Origin: Corynebacterium atrinae | GTDB lineage: Bacteria; Actinomycetota; Actinomycetes; Mycobacteriales; Mycobacteriaceae | NCBI RefSeq assembly: GCF_030408455.1 | Contig: NZ_CP046977.1 | Span: forward strand, 2,542,001 to 2,606,000 | Length of the DNA stretch: 64,000 nucleotides | Direction of reading: 5' to 3' | Part shown: positions 49,424 to 64,000 of the stretch, piece after piece | How the letters are laid out: every line of letters starts with the position of its first letter | Position numbering within the stretch: the first letter of the stretch is position 1 | Notes under the pieces: generated by a model | What the model was told of the DNA's origin: nothing | The model's database searches: none | Seen by the model: only the letters and a program-made list of their open reading frames with translations | Program-made: the position numbers and the translations under genes

Positions 49424-50371
49424 CTAGGCGACCCCGCCTTCGAGACCTTCGCGCGCGGCCAGCACCCAATCGGTGGCGAGTTGCAGGCGGTTGAGGTTCG
49501 ATTCCAGCTCCTCGGGCCGGCCCTCCTCGCGCGGGATCGGCCACGATCCGAGGTAGGTGATGTCCTCCGCTCGGAGCCACAGGGCGCGGAGCGCTTCGGC
49601 GAGGGGGGCGTCGTCGATGTGGCCGATGAGGTCGACATAGAAGTGGTAGGTGCCGAATTCCTGGCGGGTGGGCCGCGACTCAATGCGGCTCATGTCGACG
49701 CCCCGCAGCGCGAACTCAGTGAGCGCGCCGACGAGGGTGCCAGGCTCGTTGGGGAGGGTGAACACGACCGTCGTGGAATCGTTGCCGGTGCGGGCGGTGG
49801 GGACGCCGCGGGCACCGACGACAACGAAGCGAGTGCGCGCTCCGGCCAGGTCAGCGACGTTCTCTGCCAAAACATCAAGCCCGAAGAGGGCGGCGGCACG
49901 GTCGGGGGCGGCAGCAGCATCGGCGCGCCCCTCCGCGACGGCCTCGGCGGCGGCCGCGTTAGAGGAGGCCGGGATGAAGCTCGCCCCGGGGATGTTCTCA
50001 GCCAGCCACTTGCGAACCTGCTGGTGGGCGACGGGGTGCGTGGCAAAAGTCCGCACGTCCTCCAACGCCATGCCGGGCCGCACCATGATGGAGAAGGCGA
50101 TCTCGAGTTCCAACTCGCGGTAGATCTGCACTCCCCCGTCCTCAACGAGGGCATCGAGCGTCGACGTCACCGAACCATCCACGGAGTTCTCGATCGCCAC
50201 GCAGGCGAAACTCGCTGCCCCGGTGCGCACCGCGTCGAGCGCCTCCCGCGGTGAACTCACTGGTAGTGGGGTGATGTCCGCCTCCCCGAAGGCCCCGGCC
50301 TCGGCGAAGCGCAGGAGCGCTGCCTCCGTAAAAGTTCCGGCGGGCCCGAGGTAAGCGACAGTGGTGGTCAT
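49424..50371 (-). CDS. pheA: Prephenate dehydratase
   Basis: A 315-residue monofunctional enzyme converting prephenate to phenylpyruvate in phenylalanine synthesis. The catalytic domain begins VAYLGPAGTFTE and contains the TRF motif (GARTRFVVVG) near residue 180. The C-terminal ACT domain has the phenylalanine-binding motifs, NEPGTLVGAL and IESRP, so feedback inhibition is expected. ATG 50371 is chosen because the family starts here; upstream codons are not homologous. Divergent from the amidase gene with 34 bases between starts. Confidence 0.96.
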   Translation of the reverse strand: MTTTVAYLGPAGTFTEAALLRFAEAGAFGEADITPLPVSSPREALDAVRTGAASFACVAIENSVDGSVTSTLDALVEDGGVQIYRELELEIAFSIMVRPGMALEDVRTFATHPVAHQQVRKWLAENIPGASFIPASSNAAAAEAVAEGRADAAAAPDRAAALFGLDVLAENVADLAGARTRFVVVGARGVPTARTGNDSTTVVFTLPNEPGTLVGALTEFALRGVDMSRIESRPTRQEFGTYHFYVDLIGHIDDAPLAEALRALWLRAEDITYLGSWPIPREEGRPEELESNLNRLQLATDWVLAAREGLEGGVA

Positions 50372-50405
50372 GACTGACAGCCTATCCAGTCGTAATGTGG
50401 TCGGC

Positions 50406-51638
50406 ATGGTTTCCTCCGTCCGCGCGACCGTCGCCGCGCTTCGTCGTGGTGAGCTCAGCGCCGTCTCCCAGGTGGAGAAGTTGGCGCGCCGCCTGGATGG
50501 CCTCACCCCCGCCGAGCACGGTTTCAGTCATGTGGACCTTGATGCCGCCTATTCGGCGGCCATGCTTATCGACGCCGTCCCTCCCGCACCCCGCAGCCGC
50601 CTCCACGGTCTACTCATGCCCATCAAAGACCTGTCGAACGTCGCCGGGATGCCCACCACCTCCGGGTCTGCCCGGCGCGCCCGCCTGGCACACCACAACG
50701 ACGTGTTCGTGGACGAACTGCTCGCGGAGGGGGTGGTCATCCCGGGGAAGAGTGCCGCGGCGGAGCTGGGGTTGACCATTTATACCGAACCGCCGGGGCT
50801 GCCCTTCCCAGATAATCCGCTGTGGCCTGGGCGGACCCCCGCTGGTTCTTCTGGTGGGGCGGCGGTGTTGGTGGCCCGGGGCATCCTGCCCGCTGCTCAT
50901 GCCTCGGATGGGGGTGGCTCGATTCGGGTGCCGGCTGCGGCCTGCGGGGTCGTGGGCTTCAAACCTTCCGCCCCGCAGTTGGCAGCGCAGGGCTTCATCA
51001 CGCGCACGGTTGACGATGCAGCGTTCTTGCATGGGTACCCCGGGGGCGTCGGTCCCCGACGGCGGATCGGGGTCTTGGCCGAGCCGCTATTCGCCGAGGC
51101 AGAGGTGGATGAGGTGATGCTGGCGGCGTTGGCGTCGGCTGCTTCCGAGTTGGCGGAGGCGGGACACGAGGTCGTGGCGGTGGACCCGTACCCGCAGGCG
51201 GCGGATACCTTTGCGGCCTTTCGCACCATCTTTACCTCCAAGCTCGCCGGGTTGCGCGGGCCCACCGAGGGCATTGTCGCCTGGCTGCGCGCTCATGGCC
51301 GCGCGGTGACCCGCTCCCAGTTCGCCGAGGCCACGGCACACGCGAGCGCGCTATCCGACCTGCTGGTGCGGACCTGGGACGTCGACGCCCTGCTCACCCC
51401 CATGACCACCACCGCCGCTCCCCCACCGATCGGCTACTTCGCGAGCCTCGACCCGGAGGAGAACTTCCTCGCCCAGACCCGCTGGTCGCCCTGGGGGTCA
51501 CTGTTCAACATGTCCGGGCGCGGGGCGATCTCGGTGCCGTGGGCTGTGGTCGGCGGACCTCCGGTGGGCGTGAACCTCGGGTCGATCACCCTCGACGACG
51601 CAGCCCTCCTCCAGCTGGCCACGGAGCTTGAACGATGA
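50406..51638 (+). CDS. Amidase signature family protein
   Basis: A 410-residue hydrolase of the amidase-signature family. The Ser-cisSer-Lys triad is K74 (MPIKDLSNVAG), S149 (TPAGSSGGAAV) and S172 (GGGSIRVPA). Substrate cannot be predicted; corynebacterial annotation calls it AmiC. ATG 50406 has no strong ribosome site; GTG 50361 would add 15 residues and overlap the pheA start. Its stop overlaps the CPBP gene start by four bases. Confidence 0.87.
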   Translation: MVSSVRATVAALRRGELSAVSQVEKLARRLDGLTPAEHGFSHVDLDAAYSAAMLIDAVPPAPRSRLHGLLMPIKDLSNVAGMPTTSGSARRARLAHHNDVFVDELLAEGVVIPGKSAAAELGLTIYTEPPGLPFPDNPLWPGRTPAGSSGGAAVLVARGILPAAHASDGGGSIRVPAAACGVVGFKPSAPQLAAQGFITRTVDDAAFLHGYPGGVGPRRRIGVLAEPLFAEAEVDEVMLAALASAASELAEAGHEVVAVDPYPQAADTFAAFRTIFTSKLAGLRGPTEGIVAWLRAHGRAVTRSQFAEATAHASALSDLLVRTWDVDALLTPMTTTAAPPPIGYFASLDPEENFLAQTRWSPWGSLFNMSGRGAISVPWAVVGGPPVGVNLGSITLDDAALLQLATELER

Positions 51639-52372
51639 CTACGCCACGCCTGCAAAGGGTGCGCCTGGAAATCCTCCTGGTCCTCGCCATCACCTTCGGC
51701 ATCTCCGGGCTGCGGGCCTCGCTCCGGCTCATCGATTCCCTCCTCAGCCCCACTCCCCTCAACGAGCAGCAAGTCACGCTCAACACCACCATGTCCTCGT
51801 CCGTGTGGATCGATCTGGGGCTGCAATTGTGTTCGGCCGGGGTGCTCGTCGCCTACGGGTGCCTCGCCCTCTTCCTCCTCGCCGGTGATGGGATCACGCT
51901 CCATCGCCCGCGCTGGAGCGACGTGGCCTGGGGCGCTGGGTTGGCGGCGATCATTGGGATTCCCGGCCTGGTTTTCTACGCCTCCGCCGTTCACCTCGGC
52001 CTCTCCCGGGTAGTGATCCCCACCACGTTGACGCACCCGTGGACGGAAGTGCCAGTGCAGTTGCTGAGGTCCGGGGCGAACGCCTTTGGCGAGGAAATCG
52101 TCGTCGTCTTCTACCTGCTCACCCGGCTGCGCGGCCTCGGCTGGGGTATGCCCGCCGCGCTCGCCGCCTCCAGCGTGCTGCGCGGCAGCTACCACCTCTA
52201 CCAGGGGGTATCCGCCGGCTTCGGCAATATCCTCATGGGCCTGCTCTACGGCTGGTTTTATTGGCGCACGGGGCGCGTGTGGCCCTTGGTCATCGCTCAC
52301 TTCCTCATCGATGCCTTCGCCTTCGTCGGCTACTCCTTCCTGGCCGGCAACCTCTCGTTCCTGGGACTGTGA
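51635..52372 (+). CDS. CPBP-family intramembrane metalloprotease (Abi/CAAX-like)
   Basis: A 245-residue protein with about seven membrane helices. The active-site residues are present: the Glu pair in NAFGEEIVVVF, a His in GSYHLYQG and a third motif His in AHFLIDAFAF. The usual EExxxR is EEIVVVF here, so the Arg is missing or shifted. Family members process proteins or protect against bacteriocins. Four-base overlap with the amidase gene. Confidence 0.8.
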   Translation: MTTPRLQRVRLEILLVLAITFGISGLRASLRLIDSLLSPTPLNEQQVTLNTTMSSSVWIDLGLQLCSAGVLVAYGCLALFLLAGDGITLHRPRWSDVAWGAGLAAIIGIPGLVFYASAVHLGLSRVVIPTTLTHPWTEVPVQLLRSGANAFGEEIVVVFYLLTRLRGLGWGMPAALAASSVLRGSYHLYQGVSAGFGNILMGLLYGWFYWRTGRVWPLVIAHFLIDAFAFVGYSFLAGNLSFLGL

Positions 52373-52389
52373 CAGGTAACCTCTTATCC

Positions 52390-53634
52390 ATGGATGAACG
52401 GGATTACCGAGACGACCGCAGGCCACCCCGCCCGCGATCTACCGACCCACGCGATTCGGGCGACATCGTCCGTGGGCGCGACGGCCGTCCCCTCGTCGAT
52501 CGTTTCGGCCGCCCCGTTCGCCGCCGTCCGGATGCTCGCAATGCTCCGCAGCGTCGCCCGCGTCGCGACGCCCCGCCTCCCGCAGCTGAGCCCACCCGCT
52601 ACGAATCGCCGCGGCAGTACATTCCCCCGCGTGAGGTTCCCCGTCGGCCCCAGCCTGTGCCATCAGCCCAGCCGGTGCCGCGATCCATTCGTCCCCAGCC
52701 GGCCGCGGTACCCCGCAAGCGTCGCCGCGCTCCCCGGCCGGGTGGGTGCCTCCGCTCGCTCGGCGGGCTGCTCGCCGTGGTGTTGGTGTTGGGCATATCG
52801 ATGCTCTTCTGGGTCGATTCCAAGCTCACCCGCGTCGAGGCAACCCCGTCCCCCCAGGTGGCCAACACCGCCGGAACGAACTGGCTGCTCGTGGGTTCCG
52901 ATTCCCGTCAGGGCATGAGCGAGGAGGACGTCGCCAGGCTGGGCACCGGCGGTGACATTGGCATCGGCCGCACCGACACCATCATGGTGCTGCACATCCC
53001 CAACGGCGGCCAGGCCCGACTCGTGTCGCTGCCCCGCGATAGCTACGTTTCCATCCCCGGATACGGCGAAGACAAGATCAACGCCGCCTTCACTTACGGC
53101 GGTCCGACCTTGTTGGCGTCCACGGTTGAACAGGCCACTGGCCTGCGCATTGACCACTACGCGGAGATCGGCATGGGCGGACTAGCCAACGTCGTCGACG
53201 CCATCGGCGGGGTCGAGCTGTGCCCCACCGAGCCCATCAATGATCCGCTGGCCAATCTCAATATCGTTGCGGGCTGCCAGAAGATGGACGGGCCCACCGC
53301 CTTGGGATACGTGCGCACCCGCGCCACGGCCATGGGTGACCTCGACCGGGTGGATCGCCAACGGGAGTTCTTCGGCGCCCTCATGACTGAGGCCACTCGC
53401 CCGTCGACGTTGCTCAACCCCTTCGAGTTCTTCCCGCTTGTGTCCAACACGGCCAACTCGTTCACCGTGGGCAAGGGCGACCACGCCTGGCACTTGGCGC
53501 GGGTCGCGTTGGCGATGCGCAGCGGCGTCACCACGGAAACCGTCCCCGTTGCCGGCTTCGCGGACTATGCCGTGGGCAACGTCGTCCTCTGGGATGACGC
53601 CGGCGCGCAGGCGCTGTGGAGCTCGATGAAGTAG
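52390..53634 (+). CDS. lcpB: LytR-CpsA-Psr family phosphotransferase (LcpB)
   Basis: A 414-residue membrane-anchored enzyme of the LCP family, which attaches arabinogalactan or other polymers to peptidoglycan. A basic, Pro/Arg-rich cytoplasmic tail of about 115 residues is followed by one membrane helix (LGGLLAVVLVLGISMLFWV) and the LCP domain with GSDSRQG, RTDTIMVLHI, LPRDSYVSIPGYGEDKIN and GYVRTRAT-DLDRVDRQ, containing the Asp and Arg residues that bind the polyprenyl pyrophosphate. Position matches lcpB of C. glutamicum. ATG 52390 begins MDERDYRDD; longer frames read the CPBP gene. Confidence 0.92.
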   Translation: MDERDYRDDRRPPRPRSTDPRDSGDIVRGRDGRPLVDRFGRPVRRRPDARNAPQRRPRRDAPPPAAEPTRYESPRQYIPPREVPRRPQPVPSAQPVPRSIRPQPAAVPRKRRRAPRPGGCLRSLGGLLAVVLVLGISMLFWVDSKLTRVEATPSPQVANTAGTNWLLVGSDSRQGMSEEDVARLGTGGDIGIGRTDTIMVLHIPNGGQARLVSLPRDSYVSIPGYGEDKINAAFTYGGPTLLASTVEQATGLRIDHYAEIGMGGLANVVDAIGGVELCPTEPINDPLANLNIVAGCQKMDGPTALGYVRTRATAMGDLDRVDRQREFFGALMTEATRPSTLLNPFEFFPLVSNTANSFTVGKGDHAWHLARVALAMRSGVTTETVPVAGFADYAVGNVVLWDDAGAQALWSSMK

Positions 53635-53638
53635 CCCG

Positions 53639-54553
53639 CTAGCGGATGGTCACCTGGCGGGACTTGATGTTCTGCAACTGCTTGCGCTCATCGGCGCTGA
53701 GCTGGGAATCATTATCCAGTTCGGCGTCGACGGCCTTGGACACGCGCTGCAGTTCCTCGTCGTATTCCAGGTGAGTGACCACCGGGTCAAGGTCGAAGAC
53801 CGGCACGACGATGCCGTGCGTGCGGAACACACCGGCGAACTTCGTTCCCTCGCCGAGGTTGAGCTCACCGCGGGCGGCGATGCGGGCCAGGGCGCTGAGC
53901 AGGGCATCCTCGTTGTCCACCGGGCGGACCCACCGGATGTGGGCCTTGCCGCTGCCCGGATCAACCCACCAGACGGCACCGGGGATCTCGACGTTGATGC
54001 GGTACGATTCGACCACGGCGTCATTCGCGGCCTGCATGCCCTGCGCCGTCGCCGCATCCAGCTGGGTGCCTTCCGGAATCCACCAATTGAAGTCCTGGTG
54101 TTCGGTAATCTCCAGCTCGGCGTCGGCGGGAATGAGCTCGCTCAGCGCCGGCTCGGTGCCGTCCGCCTGACCGTTGTCCAGCGTCTGACCCGGCGTGGCA
54201 TCCTTCACCCACGCCAGGGCCTTGGCCAGGTCACGGCCAGGGTTGGCGCTGCGGATCGGCAGCTGCAAGGCGACGAAGGCCTCGCCGGAATCGCGCACCA
54301 GTGCTGCTCCGCCGCCGGGCAGCACCGTCGCCACGTACACGTCCCGGTCGATGCCGGTGACATCAAGCTTGGCGACGGCCGAGGGCACAAACTCCTGCAA
54401 AGCCACCAGGTCAGCCTCTGCCGCCAGCCCACCGTAGGGGCGGGGATCGCGGTCCAGGGCAGCGCGCTCGGCGACGCGAGCTGCCAACTTCGCTTGTCGA
54501 CGGCTCATGCCTTCCGGCAGGACTTCAGCATTCTTCTTATTCTTCTTGGCCAT
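53639..54553 (-). CDS. DUF5926-family protein
   Basis: A 304-residue cytoplasmic protein of unknown function, with a very basic Lys-rich N-terminus (MAKKNKKNAEV, RRQAKLAARV). The body alternates acidic and hydrophobic stretches (VAKLDVTGIDRDVYVATVL, FNWWIPEGTQLDAATAQG, split). The family occurs only in actinobacteria, next to glpQ2 in Corynebacterium. It converges on lcpB with four bases between stops and follows glpQ2 by 21 bases. Confidence 0.7.
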   Translation of the reverse strand: MAKKNKKNAEVLPEGMSRRQAKLAARVAERAALDRDPRPYGGLAAEADLVALQEFVPSAVAKLDVTGIDRDVYVATVLPGGGAALVRDSGEAFVALQLPIRSANPGRDLAKALAWVKDATPGQTLDNGQADGTEPALSELIPADAELEITEHQDFNWWIPEGTQLDAATAQGMQAANDAVVESYRINVEIPGAVWWVDPGSGKAHIRWVRPVDNEDALLSALARIAARGELNLGEGTKFAGVFRTHGIVVPVFDLDPVVTHLEYDEELQRVSKAVDAELDNDSQLSADERKQLQNIKSRQVTIR

Positions 54554-54574
54554 GGCGTCCAAGATACCTGGGCG

Positions 54575-55300
54575 CTAGGACTGGCTCGGACCCAACACCC
54601 GCAGGGCCAATTCCGGCTCATCCGTCGCGATCATGTCGACGCCCGCGTCGCGGGCCCACAGCATGTCCTTGGGGTCATTGACCGTCCACACGTACGTCGG
54701 CAGGCCCCGCTTCCCGATGAGCTCCGGTCGGCTCCGTGCCCGCGCGAGAGACAAGCCGAGGCCGGTCGGGGTACCGGGATGAGTATCGATGGGGTTGAGC
54801 CAACGCTCGATCTTGCGGCGCAGGTGAAAACGATCGACCTGCGGGGCGATCTGTTTCATCCGGACCACCGCGGACGCGGCGAAGGAAATGATGTGGATGC
54901 GGGGGTCGTCGACAAGCCCGCGGTGCCGCAGGCACTGCACGACCTGCTCCTCCAGCATGCGCCCGTAGCGCATCGGGTGCTTGGTTTCGATGTAGATGTG
55001 CTTGTCGTCGTGCTCGGTGACCATGTCCAGCAAGTCGCCGAGAGTGAGCACTTCCTGGGGGTCGAGGGCGGTGCCGAAGTTGAAGTCCCGCAAGCGGGAG
55101 AGCGTGAGCGCGGAGACGCGCCCGGAACCATCGGCGACGCGGTCGATGATGGGATCGTGGATGACCACGACCTCGCCGTCGAGAGTCAATCGCACATCGC
55201 ATTCGACGCCGTGAATTGGCAGGGCCAGGGCGGCCTCGAAGGCGCGCCGGGTCAGTTCGGGATAACGCGCGGAATAGCCGCGGTGAGCAATGATCTTCAT
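54575..55300 (-). CDS. glpQ2: Glycerophosphodiester phosphodiesterase
   Basis: A 241-residue GDPD-family enzyme that hydrolyses glycerophosphodiesters to glycerol 3-phosphate and an alcohol. The catalytic His pair is in KIIAHRGYSARYPEL at the start and in HGVECDVRLTLDGEVVVIHDP (given in parts: GVECDVRL, VVIHDP). A Glu in YIETKHP is the metal ligand. No signal peptide, so cytoplasmic. Follows pyk2 by five bases. Confidence 0.93.
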   Translation of the reverse strand: MKIIAHRGYSARYPELTRRAFEAALALPIHGVECDVRLTLDGEVVVIHDPIIDRVADGSGRVSALTLSRLRDFNFGTALDPQEVLTLGDLLDMVTEHDDKHIYIETKHPMRYGRMLEEQVVQCLRHRGLVDDPRIHIISFAASAVVRMKQIAPQVDRFHLRRKIERWLNPIDTHPGTPTGLGLSLARARSRPELIGKRGLPTYVWTVNDPKDMLWARDAGVDMIATDEPELALRVLGPSQS

Positions 55301-55305
55301 GGCAT

Positions 55306-57156
55306 TTAAGACCAGCTGCCGATTCGGCGCAGCAGCTGGCGATTTTTGCGCTGGGAGCGGCCCAGCTTGGCGGATAGGACGTTGAGAACCCGAATGGCAT
55401 CGGTGATGTGCGGGCCCTTGTTCAGCATGACAGCCTCGCTGCGCAGGGCGTACGCGGCGTCGGTGATCTCCGCCCGGGAGGGCAGGCCGGACTTGGCCAG
55501 ATTCTCCAGGACTTGGGTGGCCATGATGGTGGGCACGTGCGCGGCCTCCGCCATCTGCGCAATGAGGCGGGGCACCTCAGCCATCCGGTCAAAGCCCAGC
55601 TCCACGGCTAGATCGCCGCGAGCGATCATGATGCCTAGGTTGGCGTGCCGCAGGCCCTCCAGCAGGATGAGGGCGAGGTTTTCAAAGGCCGGGATGGTCT
55701 CGATCTTGAGCACGATGCCGAGGTTGCGCACCCGCTCCGGGTCCTCGGACTCCTCCGCGATGCCTTCCAGGGTTTCCAGGAGGAAAGCCACGTCCGCCGG
55801 GTTGCGAATGAAAGAAACATTGGCGATGTCCCCGTGATGCGCCACAAACCTCAACGCCTCGATATCTTCCGGGCTCAGGCTAGGCAGGGGCAAGTCCGTG
55901 TCGGGCAGGTTGATGCCCTTATAGGCAGCAAGATTGGTGCCGTTGGCACCGGCGTAGTCGATGTCGAGGATGACCTCAGTGAACCCCTCGGCGGTGACTC
56001 GCTTGTCTGTTGCGACCGCGCCAATCGAGCCATCATCGAACAACACCCGCTGGCCGACTTCGATGGCGGTGACCGCCTCCGCGAGGGTGCAGCTGATCCG
56101 CGGTGTCCAGCCCGGCGCGGGCGCCGCCGGGGTCGGATCATCGGTGAGGATGAGGCGATCGCCGACGTACAGCCGCAACTTCTGCTCCGTGGCCGGGATG
56201 CCGCTGACGCGGGCCTTGCGCCAGTCGTGCTGCAAGAGAGTCGAGTTGGAAATGTAGGCATTGCGCTGGCCCTCGGCGAGGGCAGCGCCGTCCGCCAGCG
56301 TGGTGACGGTGAAGGTGCGCTTGGCATCGCGATTATCCACCAGCGTGATCTTGCTGCCCACCTCTAAAGCTTGGAACCACTCCTCGTCCACCTGGACCGG
56401 CAACGCCGGACGGCCGGCAAGGAAGGGCATCTGCGGGACAGGCGAGCCGGTGGGGGTGATCCACAGTTTCGCCGGAGTAGTCACCAACCCGGTCTCGGTG
56501 CGGGTGACGCGCGCGCGTCCCACCTCAGGTCCGGGGACGATGGCACCGGTGCGGACCTTCGGACCCGCGAGATCCATGGCGACCCTGACGGGGCGACCTG
56601 CCTCGCTGGCTGCGACGCGGACATTGGCGATCATCTGCTCCCATGCTTCTGGGCCATCGTGAGCACAATTGATGCGAGCGAGCTCCATGCCCGCGTCGAC
56701 GAATCCGCGGACGAGCTCCAGGTCGGTGGCCGCCTCCGTCGGGAGCGTAACCATGATGCGGGAACTCGTCTCCTCCAACGTCTCACCCAACAGAGTGTCC
56801 GCGTGCTGCTCCAAAATGTCATCCGCCCGCGCGAACGCAGTGCCCACCTCGGAGGACGTGTACTTCAACTCCTCTCCGGCATAAGCCGAAAGGACATTGC
56901 GGGCAGCCTGGAGGCGCGGCAGGACAGAAGGTTCCGTCGTGGTCAAACGAGTCGCCCCCACCGACGACAATCCACCCTGGATAGGACGAATATCATGCTG
57001 CCGCAGGGCCGCATAGTGCACCAGGTTGAGCGCACCATCCCGATGCGTGTCTGCGACCCGGGCAATCGCCTCTTCGTGGATCTTCGCGTCCTCATTGAGG
57101 TCGACGATGAGCTTGTCGACCTTGGTGATCAATTCCTGCAGCCTGGACTCGTCCAC
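55306..57156 (-). CDS. pyk2: Pyruvate-kinase-like protein with N-terminal extension (Pyk2 type)
   Basis: A 616-residue protein with an N-terminal region of about 145 residues not found in classical pyruvate kinase, then the barrel with its B domain. Motifs are partly conserved: DLAGPKVRTG, FDDGSIGAVA, LKIETIPAFENL, IARGDLAVELG, ATQVLENLAKSGLPSRAE. The signature MLSGETA is MLNKGPHI, and the C-terminal allosteric domain is absent. Pyk2 of C. glutamicum has the same layout. Catalytic activity is uncertain. Two inverted repeats lie in its 5' region. Confidence 0.88.
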   Translation of the reverse strand: MDESRLQELITKVDKLIVDLNEDAKIHEEAIARVADTHRDGALNLVHYAALRQHDIRPIQGGLSSVGATRLTTTEPSVLPRLQAARNVLSAYAGEELKYTSSEVGTAFARADDILEQHADTLLGETLEETSSRIMVTLPTEAATDLELVRGFVDAGMELARINCAHDGPEAWEQMIANVRVAASEAGRPVRVAMDLAGPKVRTGAIVPGPEVGRARVTRTETGLVTTPAKLWITPTGSPVPQMPFLAGRPALPVQVDEEWFQALEVGSKITLVDNRDAKRTFTVTTLADGAALAEGQRNAYISNSTLLQHDWRKARVSGIPATEQKLRLYVGDRLILTDDPTPAAPAPGWTPRISCTLAEAVTAIEVGQRVLFDDGSIGAVATDKRVTAEGFTEVILDIDYAGANGTNLAAYKGINLPDTDLPLPSLSPEDIEALRFVAHHGDIANVSFIRNPADVAFLLETLEGIAEESEDPERVRNLGIVLKIETIPAFENLALILLEGLRHANLGIMIARGDLAVELGFDRMAEVPRLIAQMAEAAHVPTIMATQVLENLAKSGLPSRAEITDAAYALRSEAVMLNKGPHITDAIRVLNVLSAKLGRSQRKNRQLLRRIGSWS

Positions 57157-57172
57157 GTGCCTCGTCTCCCTC

Positions 57173-57187
57173 GTGAGTACTACTCAC
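57173..57187 (-). promoter_or_regulatory. Palindrome in the pyk2 leader
   Basis: GTGAGTA-C-TACTCAC, perfect 7-bp arms, 16 bases before the pyk2 start. It overlaps the ribosome-binding region and is a candidate operator. Confidence 0.5.
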
Positions 57188-57196
57188 CACATTGTG

Positions 57197-57230
57197 CCTG
57201 TGCCGGGGGGATTCGGCACCTCGGCACAGG
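57197..57230 (-). repeat. 9-bp inverted repeat upstream of pyk2
   Basis: CCTGTGCCG at 57197-57205 and CGGCACAGG at 57222-57230, a GC-rich hairpin with a 16-base loop in the pyk2 promoter region. Confidence 0.5.
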
Positions 57231-57815
57231 TGAGAATTGGTGAGTTGAGGACTCTTCGGTTAGTGCGAGTTTCTATGTATTGCTGGCTCGGCGTGTGTGC
57301 GGTGTGGAACTGCGTTTGAACGAGGCAGGTGAGTCAAAGCAGCAGTAGGCACCAGAAGGCTCAAAAAAGGACCTCGGCGCTCGCTTGGTCGGGCAGATAT
57401 GCGAACATCGCTGAGGCTTCGATCTATCAGAGCTCCGTGCGGCGTATTCACAGTCAATGGACTCCGTCTTGATACGGGCGTTGAACTCTTGGATGTCTAT
57501 CGACGATTTTCGGCACGTTGGGCGGGGGTCGATAGTCTGCCCGAATGCCACCCTAGTCGTTCGACGAGCTATGGAGAGACAGACATAGAAGGCCACTGAC
57601 AGCAACGTAAGAAGTCCAGGTCCAAAAGGCAGAAATTTGGGGTCACATTGTGATTGTGATTCGCCAAGATAACCCTGGCCACCGACGCGATAGAAAGGCC
57701 AATTCACCTACCCACAAGGTAAGCTACCCCGTACAGTGTCGTACGTATCCGACAGGATGTGGTCCGGTTTGTCTCAGCGATTCGCTTCGCCCTCTCTTAA
57801 ATAATGGAGCATCGA

Positions 57816-60800
57816 ATGATTGATCAAGAGGGTTCAGAAAAGCAGAGCATATCGTCCGATCGGCTACCGGCGTGGGAGTAGCTTACCGGACATAAGTACT
57901 CACACCTACTACCGACGCCCTGGCTATCGGACACCGAATTGGAGGACTTCGTTGAGGCTCTCCTCTTTTCGGAGCGGGTTCTCGGAAACACTGCTCGCCA
58001 CGTGCAGCACGTTGAGCGATGGGGTGTCCCTGGCGACAAGCAAGATGGCATCGACTTCTTTGGCCGCTTTAACGATGGAACGCCAGCGGCCTGGCAGGTG
58101 AAGCAGCTCGAGAAGCTCACTCGTGGAGTGGTCCGAGATGCCGTTCGGGCGACGACTTTCGACAAAGCCGATGAGCTGTATCTCGTTTTCGGCGGAATAG
58201 CTACCGTACAGGCACGCAAGGAGATGCTCACTTACCCGAACTGGACACTCCTGGATCGAAGGACACTCACGGAAATGCTGAGGATCCTGCCGACTCAGAC
58301 GCAACACGACATCGTCGAACGATTCTGGGGAGCTCAGGTCCGGCGACAGTTCGTCGCTGCGCTGGGTGACGCGATGATTCCCTTTGACCGTTTCCTGACC
58401 TCCCGACAGAACCCTGCATCCATCATCAATGACCTCGGCCAGCTAGCTGGCCGAGAGGATGAACTGGATCGCCTCGCCAGCGAGTTGGACGGGTCACACG
58501 AGGGAGCGCCCCAAATTCTCGTCATCAGCGGCCCAGGTGGTCGAGGAAAGACTCGCCTGTGGAACGAGGCTCTCTGTGCCGTGATCGCACGTGATCCGAG
58601 TCGCGTCATCAGCTGCCTCGCACCGAACTGGACCTTCGACGTGAGTGCGATGCGTGATCTGCACTCAGGCACAGACATTGTCGTGATCGACGACGCGCAC
58701 AACGACCCATCCGCGTTAGACCCCCTGCTCGCCTTCGCGCGCAGCCATTCCGACCTTCGGATCATCCTCGCTACCCGACCAAGCGGTCTCCCTTCAATAC
58801 AAGGTGCGATCGCACGTGCCTCCTTCGCACCAGACGACCAACTCCTTATCTCCCTCAATGAACTGAGTCTCTCCGCAGCCAGAAAGCTCGTGGCAGGACT
58901 TACGTCCGGTCTTGACCTAAGCTTCGGTCTTCGCAACTACCTCGCCGAACAAGCCCGACACAGCCCACACATCGCTGTCATCCTGACGAACCTCATACGG
59001 AGAGGGCAAGTTAGCGGGGCAATAGCGGTCAACGCGAACCTTCGGCGGGTCGTGCTCTCGCGATACCAGGAGGTCATGGTCCCGAGCGGCTTCGAAGGAT
59101 TTGACAGCGAGATGGTCCATCGAGTGATCGCGACATACGCTTGTGTACAACCTGACGCCAGCGAGTTGACGGCCGAACGAGCGCGGATCGCAGACTTCTG
59201 TAAACTCAGCTTGCTACAACTCTCCCGGCTAACTAAACAACTCATCGACTGCGGGATCTTAATTGATACCGACGGCCGACTTCGCGTGGTGCCGGACGTA
59301 CTTGCCGACCAGATCGTCGAAGGTGTCGCGGTGTTCGCGGATTTCGACACTGGCTTCGTTTCTGAACTTTGGCAGTCCTTCGGACCGAACCACTACCAGC
59401 GACTAACGATCACACTTGGCGAGCTCGACTGGCGCGTAAGTCAACGAGGCGGGCCCGCGGTTATGGCTGCCGTTTGGAACGCAATTCGAACTCGGCTCGA
59501 CTCACCGCACCCTGCAGCACTTACGCGAGAGCTGGATCAGATCGCGCCGCTCGCAGCGACGCAACCCGCCGCCCTAGTGGCCGCGATCGAGGATGTACGC
59601 ATTCGCCTCGATCGAGACGACGTCTGGCAAGTTCCTGAGGTAGACGACGCACGCGACGCGGACGAACAACTCCATCGGCGGATCTGGCCAGGCTCTCGGT
59701 ATATCATCGGCCGGTCCGACGTGCGCGCGAAGTTGCCAAGACTCTACGGTCGCGCAGCGATATATGACTCCAGCACTCTCGAGACCGCCGTCGACGCGCT
59801 GTTGGCTCTCGCATGTGTGGACTCCCGGCCCCCACACTCACACCCGGATCACCCCAGTCGCGTTCTTTCCGATGAACTCTGCAATCTGGCGACACTCCCA
59901 GACCATTCCTACGCAACCCGGATCGTCGCACGAGTGGAGTCATTCATCTCCTCGCACAGCGATGCCGAAGCGGTCGTCGCGCTATCGGCGCTCAAACCAC
60001 TACTCGCAAAGGAGGTGGTCGAGACCACCCAGTTCTCGCATCACCAGCTATCCTTCACACCGCACCTGATCTCTGCGACCGAAATGCGGCTCGTGCGTGA
60101 CCATATTCGAGCACTACTTGTCGACGAAGCATCGTCTAACAGCCTCTTACGAGCCGGAGCCGCTATCGAACTGTTGAGGCAAGCACTACGAGCGCCTCAC
60201 GGCTACTTCGGAAACGCCGTGAGCGCGGATGCCGTGCTTACCTGGGAAGACGACGACCTCGCGACCCTGGACACACTCACGCAGGCCGCCGCACGCACTC
60301 CTTATGCGACCATCCGCCGCATGATCCGAGGCGCGATCGACTGGAACGCCAAACATGCCCAGTCGCTCCTCATTCAGCATGCGGCCCTGTCCCTGCAGCA
60401 CGAGCTCGATATCTCCGACAACCTCCGAGACGCACTTGCTGACTATGCCACCGGATTGCCATGGCAGTTGGCCAGCGAAAAAGTTGAATATGTTCCGGAC
60501 CTTGCCGAACTAAAAACCCGGAGAGACGCGAGACGCGCCGAAACGGAAGGACTATCGGAGCAAGAGCAGCGCGAGAGGAGACAGGCTGCCTCGTCCGCGA
60601 GAATCGCTGCCAAACGCGCCCGCATCTCGACCGTCAACAGTGCCCTGGCCCAACGGCTACTCAATCTCGGCACGGCGGCCGAGATCCTCGCCATCATTGG
60701 CGATGTGAGCGTCGAGTCGCAAGGGCTCGGCAAGCAGCAGTCGTTCTATGGAATTTGGCAAGCCATCGGTGACCTTCAGGCACCGATCGTGCCCGACCTC

Positions 60801-61871
60801 GTTCGCATGATCGCCTCCACACCGGAGGACCACCCTTTGGACCAGGATCTCCCAGTCCTGATCACTCAATGGAGTGGCAGCGCCATGGAAGAAACCCTTG
60901 CGTGGGCGGCAGGCGCTATCGTGTCCTCGCGGACTGGAGTGCGACTTGCTCTGGCCACATTCGTAAACGGTGTTCCCTGGACGCAGAACCAAGAGGTATT
61001 TCTCGAAATCTGGCGCACTGGCATCGCGGATCCTGACATCGACATCGCGACCGCATTCCTCGGGAGCAGCGGGTGGTATCTCCACACCAACCCTCGAGAG
61101 ACATCCGCAATGCTCCTAGCACACGACGTTCCGCCACGTGCGGCTGCGAACGCACTCATGGGCGCATGGAGTTACGATAACGACACCGGACAAACAGAGC
61201 GTGATCAGGCTACCCATTCAGCGCTGCTGTCAATCGCAGCACGTGCTGGACTCAACGACTTCATCGCCCAAGAAGTAGTCACCACCGCAGCCCGCGCGCA
61301 CCCCAAACTGGCTCTGGACTTCCTACTCGACACCATCCGCAAAGGCGAGAAAATAGATGACGGTTTTCCTGACCTTCACGCCGCCTTTGAGAAAAACGTA
61401 GACGAATTTTCGGACTGGCTCATCGAGCATCTCCACGACGGCTCCGATGATCTAGGAGAGGTTGTCTCAGCTGCACTGAGCAACCAACTCCTCCCGGACC
61501 AAGCAGCATCTCTCACCTCGATGGTCCCGGGCCTTCGCTCCAACGAACTCATCATCTTCGTGCGAGTACTTGGGTCCCTGAGGCTCTGGGTCCCGAGCAA
61601 CCTCGCGCTGGCGGATGCCTGTGTGAACCGAGCTGAGAGCGACGACGTTCTCGACGACGTCTTGCCTGAGCTCCAGCGAGGGATGCGTCTGAATACATGG
61701 GGATGGGTGGGGAACGAGTCATCTGAACTGAATGCCGCACGCGACGCGTGCGCAGCGGCCGCAGAGAAGACGACGTCTACGTACCTTTGTTCCCAGTTGA
61801 GCCAAGCAGCCGACTGGTTTCAACAGATAATTGACGAACTTCGATACAGGGAACGAGAGGAAGACTGGTGA
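57816..61871 (+). CDS. Mrr-like nuclease/P-loop NTPase, defence-system core (in-frame TAG at codon 22)
   Basis: A very large protein: 1351 residues if read from ATG 57816 through the TAG at 57879-57881, or 1310 from TTG 57939. Numbering is from 57816. The N-terminal domain has the Mrr-type PD-(D/E)xK pattern: QDGID with D77 and D80, then QVK with Q94 and K96. A P-loop follows: Walker A GPGGRGKT at 239-246 and Walker B DIVVIDD at 287-293, then LRIILATRPSG as in STAND NTPases. The remaining 900 residues look alpha-helical, like a repeat sensor. ATG 57816 has GGAG at 57806-57809; homologous-looking residues (SHLLPTPWLSD) precede the TTG. Its stop overlaps the partner gene by four bases. Function as a phage-defence protein is inferred. 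Confidence 0.7.
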
Positions 61872-63739
61872 GCTTTACCGATAACTCAGGTGGCCAAGAC
61901 CCGACGACACCTGCCGCCGACAGCGACGATCCGAGCGACCTGGCAAGTGGTAAGTACCTATACGAATCGGGGCATGGCGAGGCCGCCGCCAGTATCCTCG
62001 ATCGCCTTGGAGCCACCGCTGGTGACCCTCTGGCGATATCGCTAGCCTGTCACGCAGACGCTGAGTTCGTTGAGTTGCCGCTCGACCTTCAGTCCGAGTT
62101 GACTACTTTGCTCGGGTTCGAATTGGACGACGAGGCGATAGACGGCAGCGTTGCGCTCACACCACTATCGGGCCCACGCACTTTCTTGCAGGTGAGACCC
62201 ATCCCGGCCGCGACTCGGGAGTCACACAACTTATGGCGATCCCTGCTAGCAAGCACAAACCTGCCGATCTTGGTTGCCCTGCTATGCGACTCCCTACTTA
62301 CATCCGGTGCCGAGATCGGCGTCGAGCATGCCGCGAGGTCAGTGGCTGCCTACACCGAACTCGGAGCCGACGGCACAGTCGACAACCTCCACCGCGCTCT
62401 AGCGATCGCTAGAGCCAACACGATCGCGCGACGTCGGCGGATGCCTGAAGAGGAAGGCATTCGTAAAGAGGCGCTCAGATTCGCTAAATCCGCGATCGGC
62501 GATCACATGCCAGACGGAGTGGTCTCTCGGGTGGCGATTCCGCTCTCGGCTGGCCCCGCAACCTACTCGATGGCGAACGACGAACGTGCACAGGTACGGG
62601 CTGTCCTGGATCAGGCTGCGACGGAGTATCAAGACCCCTCGACTGCCGATTGGATAGCAGACTGCCGGCGCAGTCTCGCGACGACTGATTCCGAGCGACT
62701 GGAAGCGACACGCCAGCAAGTTGACATATATCTGACCACGGCGGAATTGGAGGAAGTAGGTTTCCGGCGAATGCACTGGGCCTCCGCAGCGGCCGACGTT
62801 GCCAGTCGCTACGGCGACACAGAATCGCGCGACAGAGCCGTCAAGATTATGCAGTCCGTGCCTCCAGAGTCGATGGGATGGCAATCCCACGAGGCAACCC
62901 TCATCGTGCCGACCAGCGCCTTCCGCAGCCACGTGCGGCGATACAAGCTGGCTGCCGACTGGCGCTACGCGCTGCGGATCTTTCTGGCATCGACATCCCC
63001 AGCGGGCAGCCACGCCGAGAACGTTGCAACTTCTAAGGCATCGTCAGCAGGCAGCATCCGGCGTCTGGTTTCGCGCATAGCATTCGGATCCCACGGTCTA
63101 CCAGAACGAAGCGACGGTGACTTCGATGAGGAAGAGCTTGTGCGAACGGAGCAATTTGCGATCGGTATCCACGGGATACTACTCAATCTGGAGTTGACCG
63201 AAATTGAGCGAAGGTTTGGACGGCCTGCGGAGTCAGAGATTGCTTCCTGGATGTGCGCAACCTTTGGCGGTGACCCCACTCATGCGTCTCAATTCGCCCA
63301 CTCTCTCCACCTGCACTGGCGCGGGGAGCCGTCGGATAGTGCGCGTCTCGCTATCCCGCTGATCGAAGCAGGAGCGCGACGCCTACTCCTGCTGCTCGAT
63401 GAACCGATCTACAGGCTCGAGCGGGGGGCATCACCTGGCAGGTTCCCAGCCATGGATTTCTACGTAGACAAACTTGAAGGGCTGAACCTAGACGTGGACT
63501 GGGTCCGCGCGTTGCGAACAACGCTCCTAAACCCCGGCATGAACTTACGCAACATGTCGGCTCACGGATTCAAGTTTAACTTCGTCTCTTCCGAGTCCGC
63601 AGTCCTATTGCGTCTGGCGGGCTTGTTCTGCGCATTGCCGATCAAACAAGAAAGCGAATCTGACCGTGAAATGCTGAAGCGCCCCACTGAAGGAGCGCGT
63701 CGAACCTTGCGGCGTCGACTTTCTTGGACTTGGCGCTAG
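61868..63739 (+). CDS. Partner protein with C-terminal HEPN/DUF4209-like domain
   Basis: A 623-residue, mostly alpha-helical protein. The C-terminus has LLNPGMNLRNMSAHGF, in which R561-N562 and H566 form the R-N-x3-H pattern of HEPN ribonucleases and resemble the LRN-x-AHG core of DUF4209 proteins. The preceding stretch GARRLLLLLDEPIYRLE is also DUF4209-like. The first 40 residues are acidic and probably disordered. GTG start overlaps the nuclease-NTPase stop (GTGA), so both are made together. It could be the RNase effector or sensor of the system. No close family was identified with certainty. Confidence 0.65.
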   Translation: MSFTDNSGGQDPTTPAADSDDPSDLASGKYLYESGHGEAAASILDRLGATAGDPLAISLACHADAEFVELPLDLQSELTTLLGFELDDEAIDGSVALTPLSGPRTFLQVRPIPAATRESHNLWRSLLASTNLPILVALLCDSLLTSGAEIGVEHAARSVAAYTELGADGTVDNLHRALAIARANTIARRRRMPEEEGIRKEALRFAKSAIGDHMPDGVVSRVAIPLSAGPATYSMANDERAQVRAVLDQAATEYQDPSTADWIADCRRSLATTDSERLEATRQQVDIYLTTAELEEVGFRRMHWASAAADVASRYGDTESRDRAVKIMQSVPPESMGWQSHEATLIVPTSAFRSHVRRYKLAADWRYALRIFLASTSPAGSHAENVATSKASSAGSIRRLVSRIAFGSHGLPERSDGDFDEEELVRTEQFAIGIHGILLNLELTEIERRFGRPAESEIASWMCATFGGDPTHASQFAHSLHLHWRGEPSDSARLAIPLIEAGARRLLLLLDEPIYRLERGASPGRFPAMDFYVDKLEGLNLDVDWVRALRTTLLNPGMNLRNMSAHGFKFNFVSSESAVLLRLAGLFCALPIKQESESDREMLKRPTEGARRTLRRRLSWTWR

Positions 63740-64000
63740 CTCCCGCGCCAGGCGAGAGCTGCACCGTTCACTCTTGCTCTGTCCAGCGGCGTTGGGGAAG
63801 GCATTGACCTATTCGACGGCCGATTCGAGATTCCAGTGACCTACGTGGAGGTCAAACAGTGGTCGACTTTCACTAATGAGGTGCCCAAACCCTGTTTTCT
63901 GCTCCCACTACAGTCAGGACCAAAACCGCCTACGCACAGCCGCAAACCAAAAGACCTGACCCACAAAATCCCGCAGGTCAGGCCTTAAGGCCACAAGGCA
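63740..64000. other. Right-end non-coding stretch
   Basis: No gene is recognised in the last 261 bases. A short frame near 63780-63880 has no ribosome site. The end holds a terminator-like hairpin pointing to a minus-strand gene outside the window. Confidence 0.4.
63946..63982 (-). terminator. Terminator of a minus-strand gene beyond the window
   Basis: CCTGACC at 63955-63961 pairs with GGTCAGG at 63976-63982. On the minus strand the stem is followed by TCTTTTGGTTT. It ends a gene read from the right. Confidence 0.65.

What the first reader, a model, noticed from the sequence alone, without database searches (positions are those of the whole stretch)
57816..63739. Two-gene Mrr-nuclease/NTPase plus HEPN-like module, candidate undescribed defence system
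The sequence shows an Mrr-type nuclease motif (DGID then QVK), a P-loop NTPase with a STAND-like LATRPSG, a 900-residue helical C-terminus, and a four-base-overlapping partner whose C-terminus carries R-N-x3-H. Known anti-phage families (Avs/STAND, Mrr-fused NTPases) combine a nuclease effector, an NTPase switch and a repeat sensor in the same order. The partner adds a potential second, RNA-directed effector. The pair stands where synteny with the core chromosome ends. I do not recognise this pairing as a named system. Whether it defends against phage is inference.
Basis: partly seen in the sequence, partly recalled or inferred. Interest (0 to 1): 0.85.

Follow-up and report, generated by a model that had tools for sequence, protein, structure and literature searches.

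The report
NLR-like nuclease with HEPN partner
A two-gene unit, inserted between two metabolic genes of an actinobacterial chromosome, encodes an immune-receptor-like protein with a DNA-cutting domain and a probable RNA-cutting partner that look like an anti-phage defence pair, although in this strain the first gene is interrupted near its start.

Summary
Gene A (57939-61871) has Mrr nuclease residues, a STAND-type NTPase and a long helical C-terminus. Gene B (61868-63739, four-base overlap) is a DUF4209-like HEPN protein: RN-x3-H is kept in 21 of 21 aligned B proteins, and 19 of 21 match PADLOC candidate PDC-S39 at E <= 1.

Corrections: the A frame from ATG 57816 meets an in-frame TAG (57879-57881) in a segment that full-length relatives keep, so A is truncated or off here. 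The pair is a ~6.8 kb insert between ldh and a pyk-like gene; these are adjacent in 18 of 33 other pyk-carrying genomes of the genus. 2 of 242 genus genomes (own included) carry any A.

A and B are not obligate partners: 15 of 15 distant named A loci with flanks lack an adjacent B, as does Agromyces ramosus; six Microbacteriaceae genomes have B without A. Known pairs fall in one A clade. Solo A genes lie among CRISPR, Wadjet, Uzume and other defence-like genes, and distant A relatives carry other N-terminal domains.

Best reading: an NLR/Avs-like DNase receptor whose one clade acquired a portable HEPN RNase as second effector. New variant of a known kind; no function was tested.

The parts
57225..64000 (.). 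Insert between the pyk-like gene (55306-57156, -) and ldh (- strand, beyond the window, G000:C1:2606010-2606963); it ends about 14 bases past the window end (virtual 64014)
   Evidence: Left homology to empty sites in G075/G198 ends at 57223-57224 and right homology resumes at 64015-64020; GC 0.587 against 0.664 in 50001-57225
57816..57881 (+). Start of the longer N-terminal frame of gene A (ATG 57816), ended by in-frame TAG 57879-57881
   Evidence: Translation compared with full-length relatives
57939..61871 (+). Gene A, longest intact ORF (TTG start, 1310 aa): Mrr-type nuclease, nSTAND NTPase, helical C-terminus
57942..58103 (+). Mrr nuclease residues E2, D39, Q53, K55 of the ORF (E43, D80, Q94, K96 of P0023)
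   Evidence: Mrr_cat PF04471 in 23 of 35 homologs. The role of these residues in Mrr is recalled
58530..58700 (+). P-loop (GPGGRGKT) and Walker B (DDAH) of the STAND NTPase
   Evidence: nSTAND_NTPase5 in 34 of 35 homologs
59394..61871 (+). Helical C-terminal region (from about residue 486), putative sensor
   Evidence: DSSP on the model of residues 1-1195; HEAT_2 profile in 2 of 35 homologs
61868..63739 (+). Gene B (GTG start, 623 aa): helical N-terminal region plus C-terminal DUF4209-like HEPN domain
63548..63565 (+). HEPN motif R561-N-M-S-A-H566 (R-x4-H)
   Evidence: kept in 21 of 21 and 10 of 10 aligned proteins; R-x4-6-H as HEPN catalytic motif: PMC3710099 passages

Best explanation
A is an NLR-like (Avs-like) immune receptor. 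Its C-terminal helical repeats recognise an invader component, the STAND NTPase then oligomerises, and the N-terminal Mrr nucleases are brought together and cut DNA. B is a portable HEPN ribonuclease that one clade of A acquired in its operon, where it is made in step with A and acts as a second, RNA-directed effector (or is released or activated by A), so that infection ends in growth arrest or cell death. Shown: architecture, conserved catalytic residues, operon, correlated divergence in the few known pairs, insertion into a site that is empty in relatives, defence-like neighbourhoods of relatives, exchange of the N-terminal domain in distant relatives. Inferred: sensing, oligomerisation, DNA and RNA cleavage, dependence of B on A, anti-phage function. 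In this strain the A N-terminus is interrupted, so the system is probably impaired or off.
Against: No function was tested. B is not beside A in most A loci seen and A is absent from the 6 other B genomes, so functional coupling is not proven. The HEPN fold of B was not confirmed by structure: fold searches aligned mainly its helical N-terminal region. Whole-model TM-scores of A to its top Foldseek hits are low (0.12-0.22) and unrelated helical proteins (karyopherins) follow closely; clamp loaders and other AAA ATPases tie with the NLRs in VIA. No PADLOC model matches A. The A gene here is interrupted. No A relative was found in phage records or viral contigs.
Confidence: 0.55

Rival explanations
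1. A is a self-sufficient defence receptor and B is an independent HEPN defence protein (PDC-S39 type) that merely shares the operon in one clade; the two do not act together.
For: A occurs without adjacent B in 15 of 15 named distant loci with flanks and in Agromyces ramosus; B occurs in 6 of 398 Microbacteriaceae genomes, none of which has an A match, and beside different genes: a DUF4011/MTES_1575 helicase-nuclease (L069), an SMC-like AAA ATPase (L068).
Against: 4-nt overlap, neighbouring genes in M. luteolum too, correlated divergence and one paired clade.
Confidence: 0.27
2. B is a regulator, adaptor or sensor of A (holding it off or recognising the trigger), and its HEPN domain is a binding fold rather than an enzyme.
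For: B has a large helical N-terminal part that matches helical-repeat scaffolds; partner proteins encoded beside receptors can be regulators (recalled).
Against: R561 and H566 are kept in 21 of 21, also in relatives that occur without A, which points to catalysis.
Confidence: 0.1
3. In this genome the locus is a decaying remnant without function (this concerns only this copy and can be true together with the best explanation).
For: In-frame TAG in A; other split copies: L018 A in two frames, L071 B in two ORFs; no other genome of the genus searched has this close A type.
Against: No other stop in 1310 codons of A, and B is open over 623 codons; a TTG or GTG restart could give a product lacking the first 41-62 residues.
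Confidence: 0.6

Closest known systems
Avs (AVAST) STAND defence proteins, e.g. Avs5 (9jap, 9nc9) and Avs4 (8dgf)
   Same: N-terminal effector, STAND NTPase, C-terminal helical region; best Foldseek match is EfAvs5
   Different: No PADLOC match for A; profile match to Avs4 only E 0.77; operon partner of DUF4209 type. That Avs4 carries an Mrr-like nuclease is recalled
STAND proteins with Mrr_cat, SIR2 or TIR effectors in the P4 satellite hotspot (PMC9122126, passages seen)
   Same: Mrr_cat + STAND + C-terminal repeats
   Different: Those are from E. coli phage satellites; no HEPN partner for them is mentioned in the passages seen
DUF4209/C6orf70 HEPN family (PMC3710099, passages seen) and PADLOC PDC-S39
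   Same: R-x4-H motif, DUF4209 similarity, 19 of 21 match PDC-S39 at E <= 1
   Different: PDC-S39 is a single-gene candidate (my reading of the PADLOC label, recalled); here the gene is in an operon with a STAND nuclease. The one paper found for PDC-S39 (PMC11878078, listing only) was not opened
nSTAND2 two-gene conflict systems (PMC8195603, passages seen)
   Same: STAND-centred two-gene unit in which a HEPN RNase can be an effector
   Different: There both genes encode STAND modules and HEPN is fused to an inactive STAND; here B gave no NTPase profile match

Membership tests
STAND NTPase defence receptor (Avs-like) | STAND NTPase with intact Walker A/B | tested here: met
   nSTAND_NTPase5 in 34 of 35 homologs at E <= 0.01, in the window protein E 1e-6 but below the curated cut-off; G, K and D/H kept in 47 of 47; fold matches
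STAND NTPase defence receptor (Avs-like) | N-terminal effector domain | tested here: met
   Mrr_cat in 23 of 35 homologs, catalytic residues kept, N-terminal domain exchanged in distant relatives; the window's own truncated A gives no Mrr_cat hit at E <= 1
STAND NTPase defence receptor (Avs-like) | C-terminal repeat sensor | tested here: inconclusive
   Helical from about residue 486 in the model and HEAT_2 in 2 of 35 homologs; sensing was not tested
Avs1-5 (named families) | Sequence match to a known Avs model | tested here: inconclusive
   A: 0 PADLOC families at E <= 1; 35 homologs: 22 families at E <= 0.01, none named Avs. That PADLOC holds Avs models is recalled
Avs1-5 (named families) | Activation by a phage protein (terminase, portal or other) | not testable with these tools
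   needs experiment
HEPN, DUF4209 family | Conserved R-x4-6-H motif | tested here: met
   R561-x4-H566, 21 of 21
HEPN, DUF4209 family | Profile match to PF13910 | tested here: inconclusive
   Window B 15.0 bits, below cut-off 22.3; 15 of 21 members match at E <= 1, best 0.0051; 2 of 5 further B-like proteins tested are above the cut-off
HEPN, DUF4209 family | HEPN helical-bundle fold | tested here: inconclusive
   C-terminal helices modelled but fold searches covered residues 29-412 mainly
PADLOC PDC-S39 | Match to PDLC05011/05012 | tested here: met
   PDLC05012 in 19 of 21 B proteins at E <= 1, best 2.6e-14; PDLC05011 in 5 of 21; window B E 6.8e-4 over a partial stretch. PADLOC's own thresholds were not applied
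Obligate two-gene system | A and B occur together | tested here: not met
   A without B and B without A both seen; known pairing confined to one A clade

The most novel reading that the evidence does not exclude
A two-effector bacterial NLR: activation of the Mrr-STAND receptor both cuts DNA and directly unleashes a separate, dedicated HEPN ribonuclease, acquired once among relatives in Microbacterium/Arthrobacter-type actinobacteria and able to plug into other NTPase-nuclease sensors, like a shared executioner subunit.
Probability: 0.25. Interest if true: 0.75.

Novelty: new variant of a known kind. Interest (0 to 1): 0.5.

Why it matters
If right, it gives an actinobacterial NLR-like receptor with both a DNA and an RNA effector in one operon. 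The tree suggests that the second effector was added after the solo receptor existed (A. ramosus lies just outside the clade of known pairs; the root is a midpoint and six rows inside have unknown context). Whether receptor and executioner are coupled, and whether one HEPN module serves several sensors, becomes directly testable.

Tried and rejected
Rejected: obligate two-gene system (partners occur apart). Rejected: a boundary where core synteny ends (empty ldh-pyk sites show an insert). No transposon-type boundary stood out: among the repeats shown for the insert (20 of 37 direct families, 25 of 37 inverted pairs) I saw no pair joining its two ends. No tRNA in the window, no Rfam family at gathering in 56900-64000, promoter and terminator scans near chance (2 against a mean of 1.6; 4 against 5.0). 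A 144-aa ORF in the insert's leader (57273-57707, -) matched no Pfam family. No A relative in phage records; pattern hits in viral contigs, 26 for A and 47 for B, encoded no relative. Plasmid records: A, 3 partial hits under 60% identity; B, 18. PDB sequence search: best E 0.031 for A and 0.7 for B. No HEPN structure is among the rows shown, which excludes nothing.

Two genus guesses through unnamed handles, meant to reach Microbacterium, turned out to be small genera (7 and 6 genomes, no A at E <= 1e-30), so pairing in that genus rests on database listings. Flanks of three unnamed relatives (L120-L122) had pyk without ldh nearby, so were no use for the empty site. 15 of the 33 other pyk carriers do not show ldh beside pyk (3 lack ldh at E <= 1e-60).

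The defence-neighbourhood control is weak: 79 genes from 10 Streptomyces loci (of 15 prepared, 119 genes), many from the same chromosomal place; the A set is 109 ORFs picked by codon composition, some perhaps not genes, from 15 of 16 loci (L007, a 3.7 kb contig, left out); ORFs over 900 aa were dropped in both. The tool lists families (25 of 159 shown), many of them redundant models of one gene, and not how many genes matched, so no gene count is claimed.

Contig-length matching is indirect: of 11 B clusters at 62% identity or more, other than the window's own and the truncated P0013, 3 share a contig length with an A cluster, and so does P0013; the other 8 could not be placed.

The empty answer for B in A. 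ramosus and G214 had no positive control in the same call; the similar search did find the Lentzea B.
Full report
Observation. Two genes lie on the + strand: A, longest intact ORF 57939-61871, and B, 61868-63739, overlapping by GTGA. The frame from ATG 57816 meets TAG at 57879-57881; full-length relatives (about 1350 aa) run uninterrupted through this segment. The database entry of the same protein, P0020, starts even later. The A product here therefore lacks at least the first 41 residues or is not made; nuclease residue E43 would be residue 2 of the TTG-started product and would be lost from the P0020 form. Whether the stop is real or a sequence error cannot be told from here.

Protein B. 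It shows weak DUF4209 similarity (15.0 bits against 22.3) but aligns with two plasmid proteins that are above that cut-off. R561-N-x3-H566 is kept in 21 of 21 and 10 of 10 aligned proteins. PMC3710099 (passages) lists C6orf70/DUF4209 as a HEPN family with the R-x4-6-H motif and notes its occurrence in restriction-modification-related operons. 19 of 21 B proteins match PDC-S39 at E <= 1. The model (mean pLDDT 81, pTM 0.54) is helical; the fold searches matched mainly its N-terminal helical part, so the HEPN assignment rests on sequence.

Insertion. In 91 genomes of the genus (own included), 34 carry the pyk-like gene and 80 carry ldh at E <= 1e-60. Of the 33 other pyk carriers, 30 also have ldh, and in 18 the two lie 91-253 bp apart (recounted), including the four closest by pyk identity. 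In the window genome 6.85 kb separate them. Alignment to two empty spacers puts the breakpoints at 57223-57225 and about 64015. The insert has GC 0.587 against 0.664 in the adjacent 7 kb. Only A and B were recognised in it. 2 of 242 genus genomes, own included, have an A match; the second, G214, is 24% identical, lies at another place and has HTH, Mrr_cat and nSTAND_NTPase5 matches. The nearest named A relatives come from Microbacterium, Agromyces and Arthrobacter, so the pair was probably acquired horizontally. The genus looks like Corynebacterium from genome sizes and gene content; that name is inferred, as the handles bear none.

Pairing. In M. luteolum A and B have consecutive locus tags; three further A/B cluster pairs share a contig length. 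A and B identities across these five genomes correlate (r 0.88, 10 non-independent pairs, one B truncated). In a tree of 24 chosen A rows the five paired rows, with six rows of unknown context, form a clade (100/99) and solo A. ramosus lies just outside (midpoint root). Against obligate pairing: 15 named distant A loci with flanks have no B-like ORF beside A (the sixteenth, L007, is too short to tell). Of the 16 genomes one (Lentzea) has a B, on the same contig about 12 kb away on the other strand. A. ramosus has A (65% identity) beside a resolvase gene and near a phage integrase, with no B found. In 398 Microbacteriaceae genomes 6 have B, and none of those 6 has an A match. There B sits after an SMC-like AAA ATPase operon (L068), overlaps a DUF4011 helicase with an MTES_1575 nuclease domain (L069), has no recognised partner (L070), or is split (L071). 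PMC3710099 lists an active HEPN fused to a helicase-REase protein named MTES_1575 (passage), so HEPN with such helicase-nucleases recurs. On the conjugative Arthrobacter plasmid pJ340-69 B follows a TIGR02391 gene and lies near a Swt1 HEPN gene and a restriction-modification pair.

Defence context. In 109 neighbour ORFs of 15 solo-A loci PADLOC matched 159 families at E <= 1e-5, the 25 shown including Cas3g/Cas8g, JetD, UzuA, LeoA and PDC-S05/S23/S58 models, many redundant. Pfam shows 3 phage integrases, Abi_2, ApeA_NTD1, MazG_C and NERD, next to housekeeping genes such as ribonucleotide reductase and glutamine synthetase. In 79 control ORFs PADLOC matched one family, subtilase, in 5. The control is weak, as told under Tried and rejected.

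Mechanism and novelty. The most economical reading is an Avs/NLR-like receptor with an Mrr DNase effector, to which one clade added a HEPN ribonuclease as second effector. The receptor kind is known: STAND plus Mrr_cat plus repeats is described in PMC9122126 (passages), and Avs1-4 nuclease effectors cutting phage and host DNA in PMC12931631 (one passage). A HEPN RNase as 'backup effector' is described for BREX-related systems (PMC12839542, passages), and a two-gene STAND unit with HEPN effectors in PMC8195603 (passages). In the searches made (open-licence PubMed Central only, listings and passages) I saw no paper naming an operon of an Mrr-STAND protein with a DUF4209 protein; this is not proof of absence. 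Hence: new variant of a known kind, moderate interest, with the strain's own copy probably impaired.

Noticed in passing
G214 (L091:6788-10885): Another species of the genus carries a distant A relative (24% identity) with N-terminal helix-turn-helix, Mrr_cat and nSTAND_NTPase5 matches, at a different chromosomal place and with no B found.
   Followed up: partly
L018:9770-13932; L071:8002-9914: An Agromyces A copy and a Microbacteriaceae B copy are each split over two ORFs, so breakage of these genes recurs, as in the window.
   Followed up: partly
L072 (1-20000): In the Lentzea genome a B gene, a 2144-aa ORF with a NACHT-type NTPase match and, on the other strand, a solo A share one 30 kb contig, like a defence island.
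   Followed up: partly
L089:6352-13731: In the Agromyces ramosus genome the solo A is preceded by a resolvase gene and lies near a phage integrase gene and what reads like a tRNA end (not tested), suggesting an integrative element.
   Followed up: partly
L069:2528-9818: A B relative overlaps a gene for a DUF4011/MTES_1575 helicase-nuclease, perhaps a second kind of nuclease-plus-HEPN operon.
   Followed up: partly
window 57225-57815: About 590 bases of the insert upstream of A carry no Rfam match, and their one 144-aa ORF no Pfam match; their role is unknown.
   Followed up: partly
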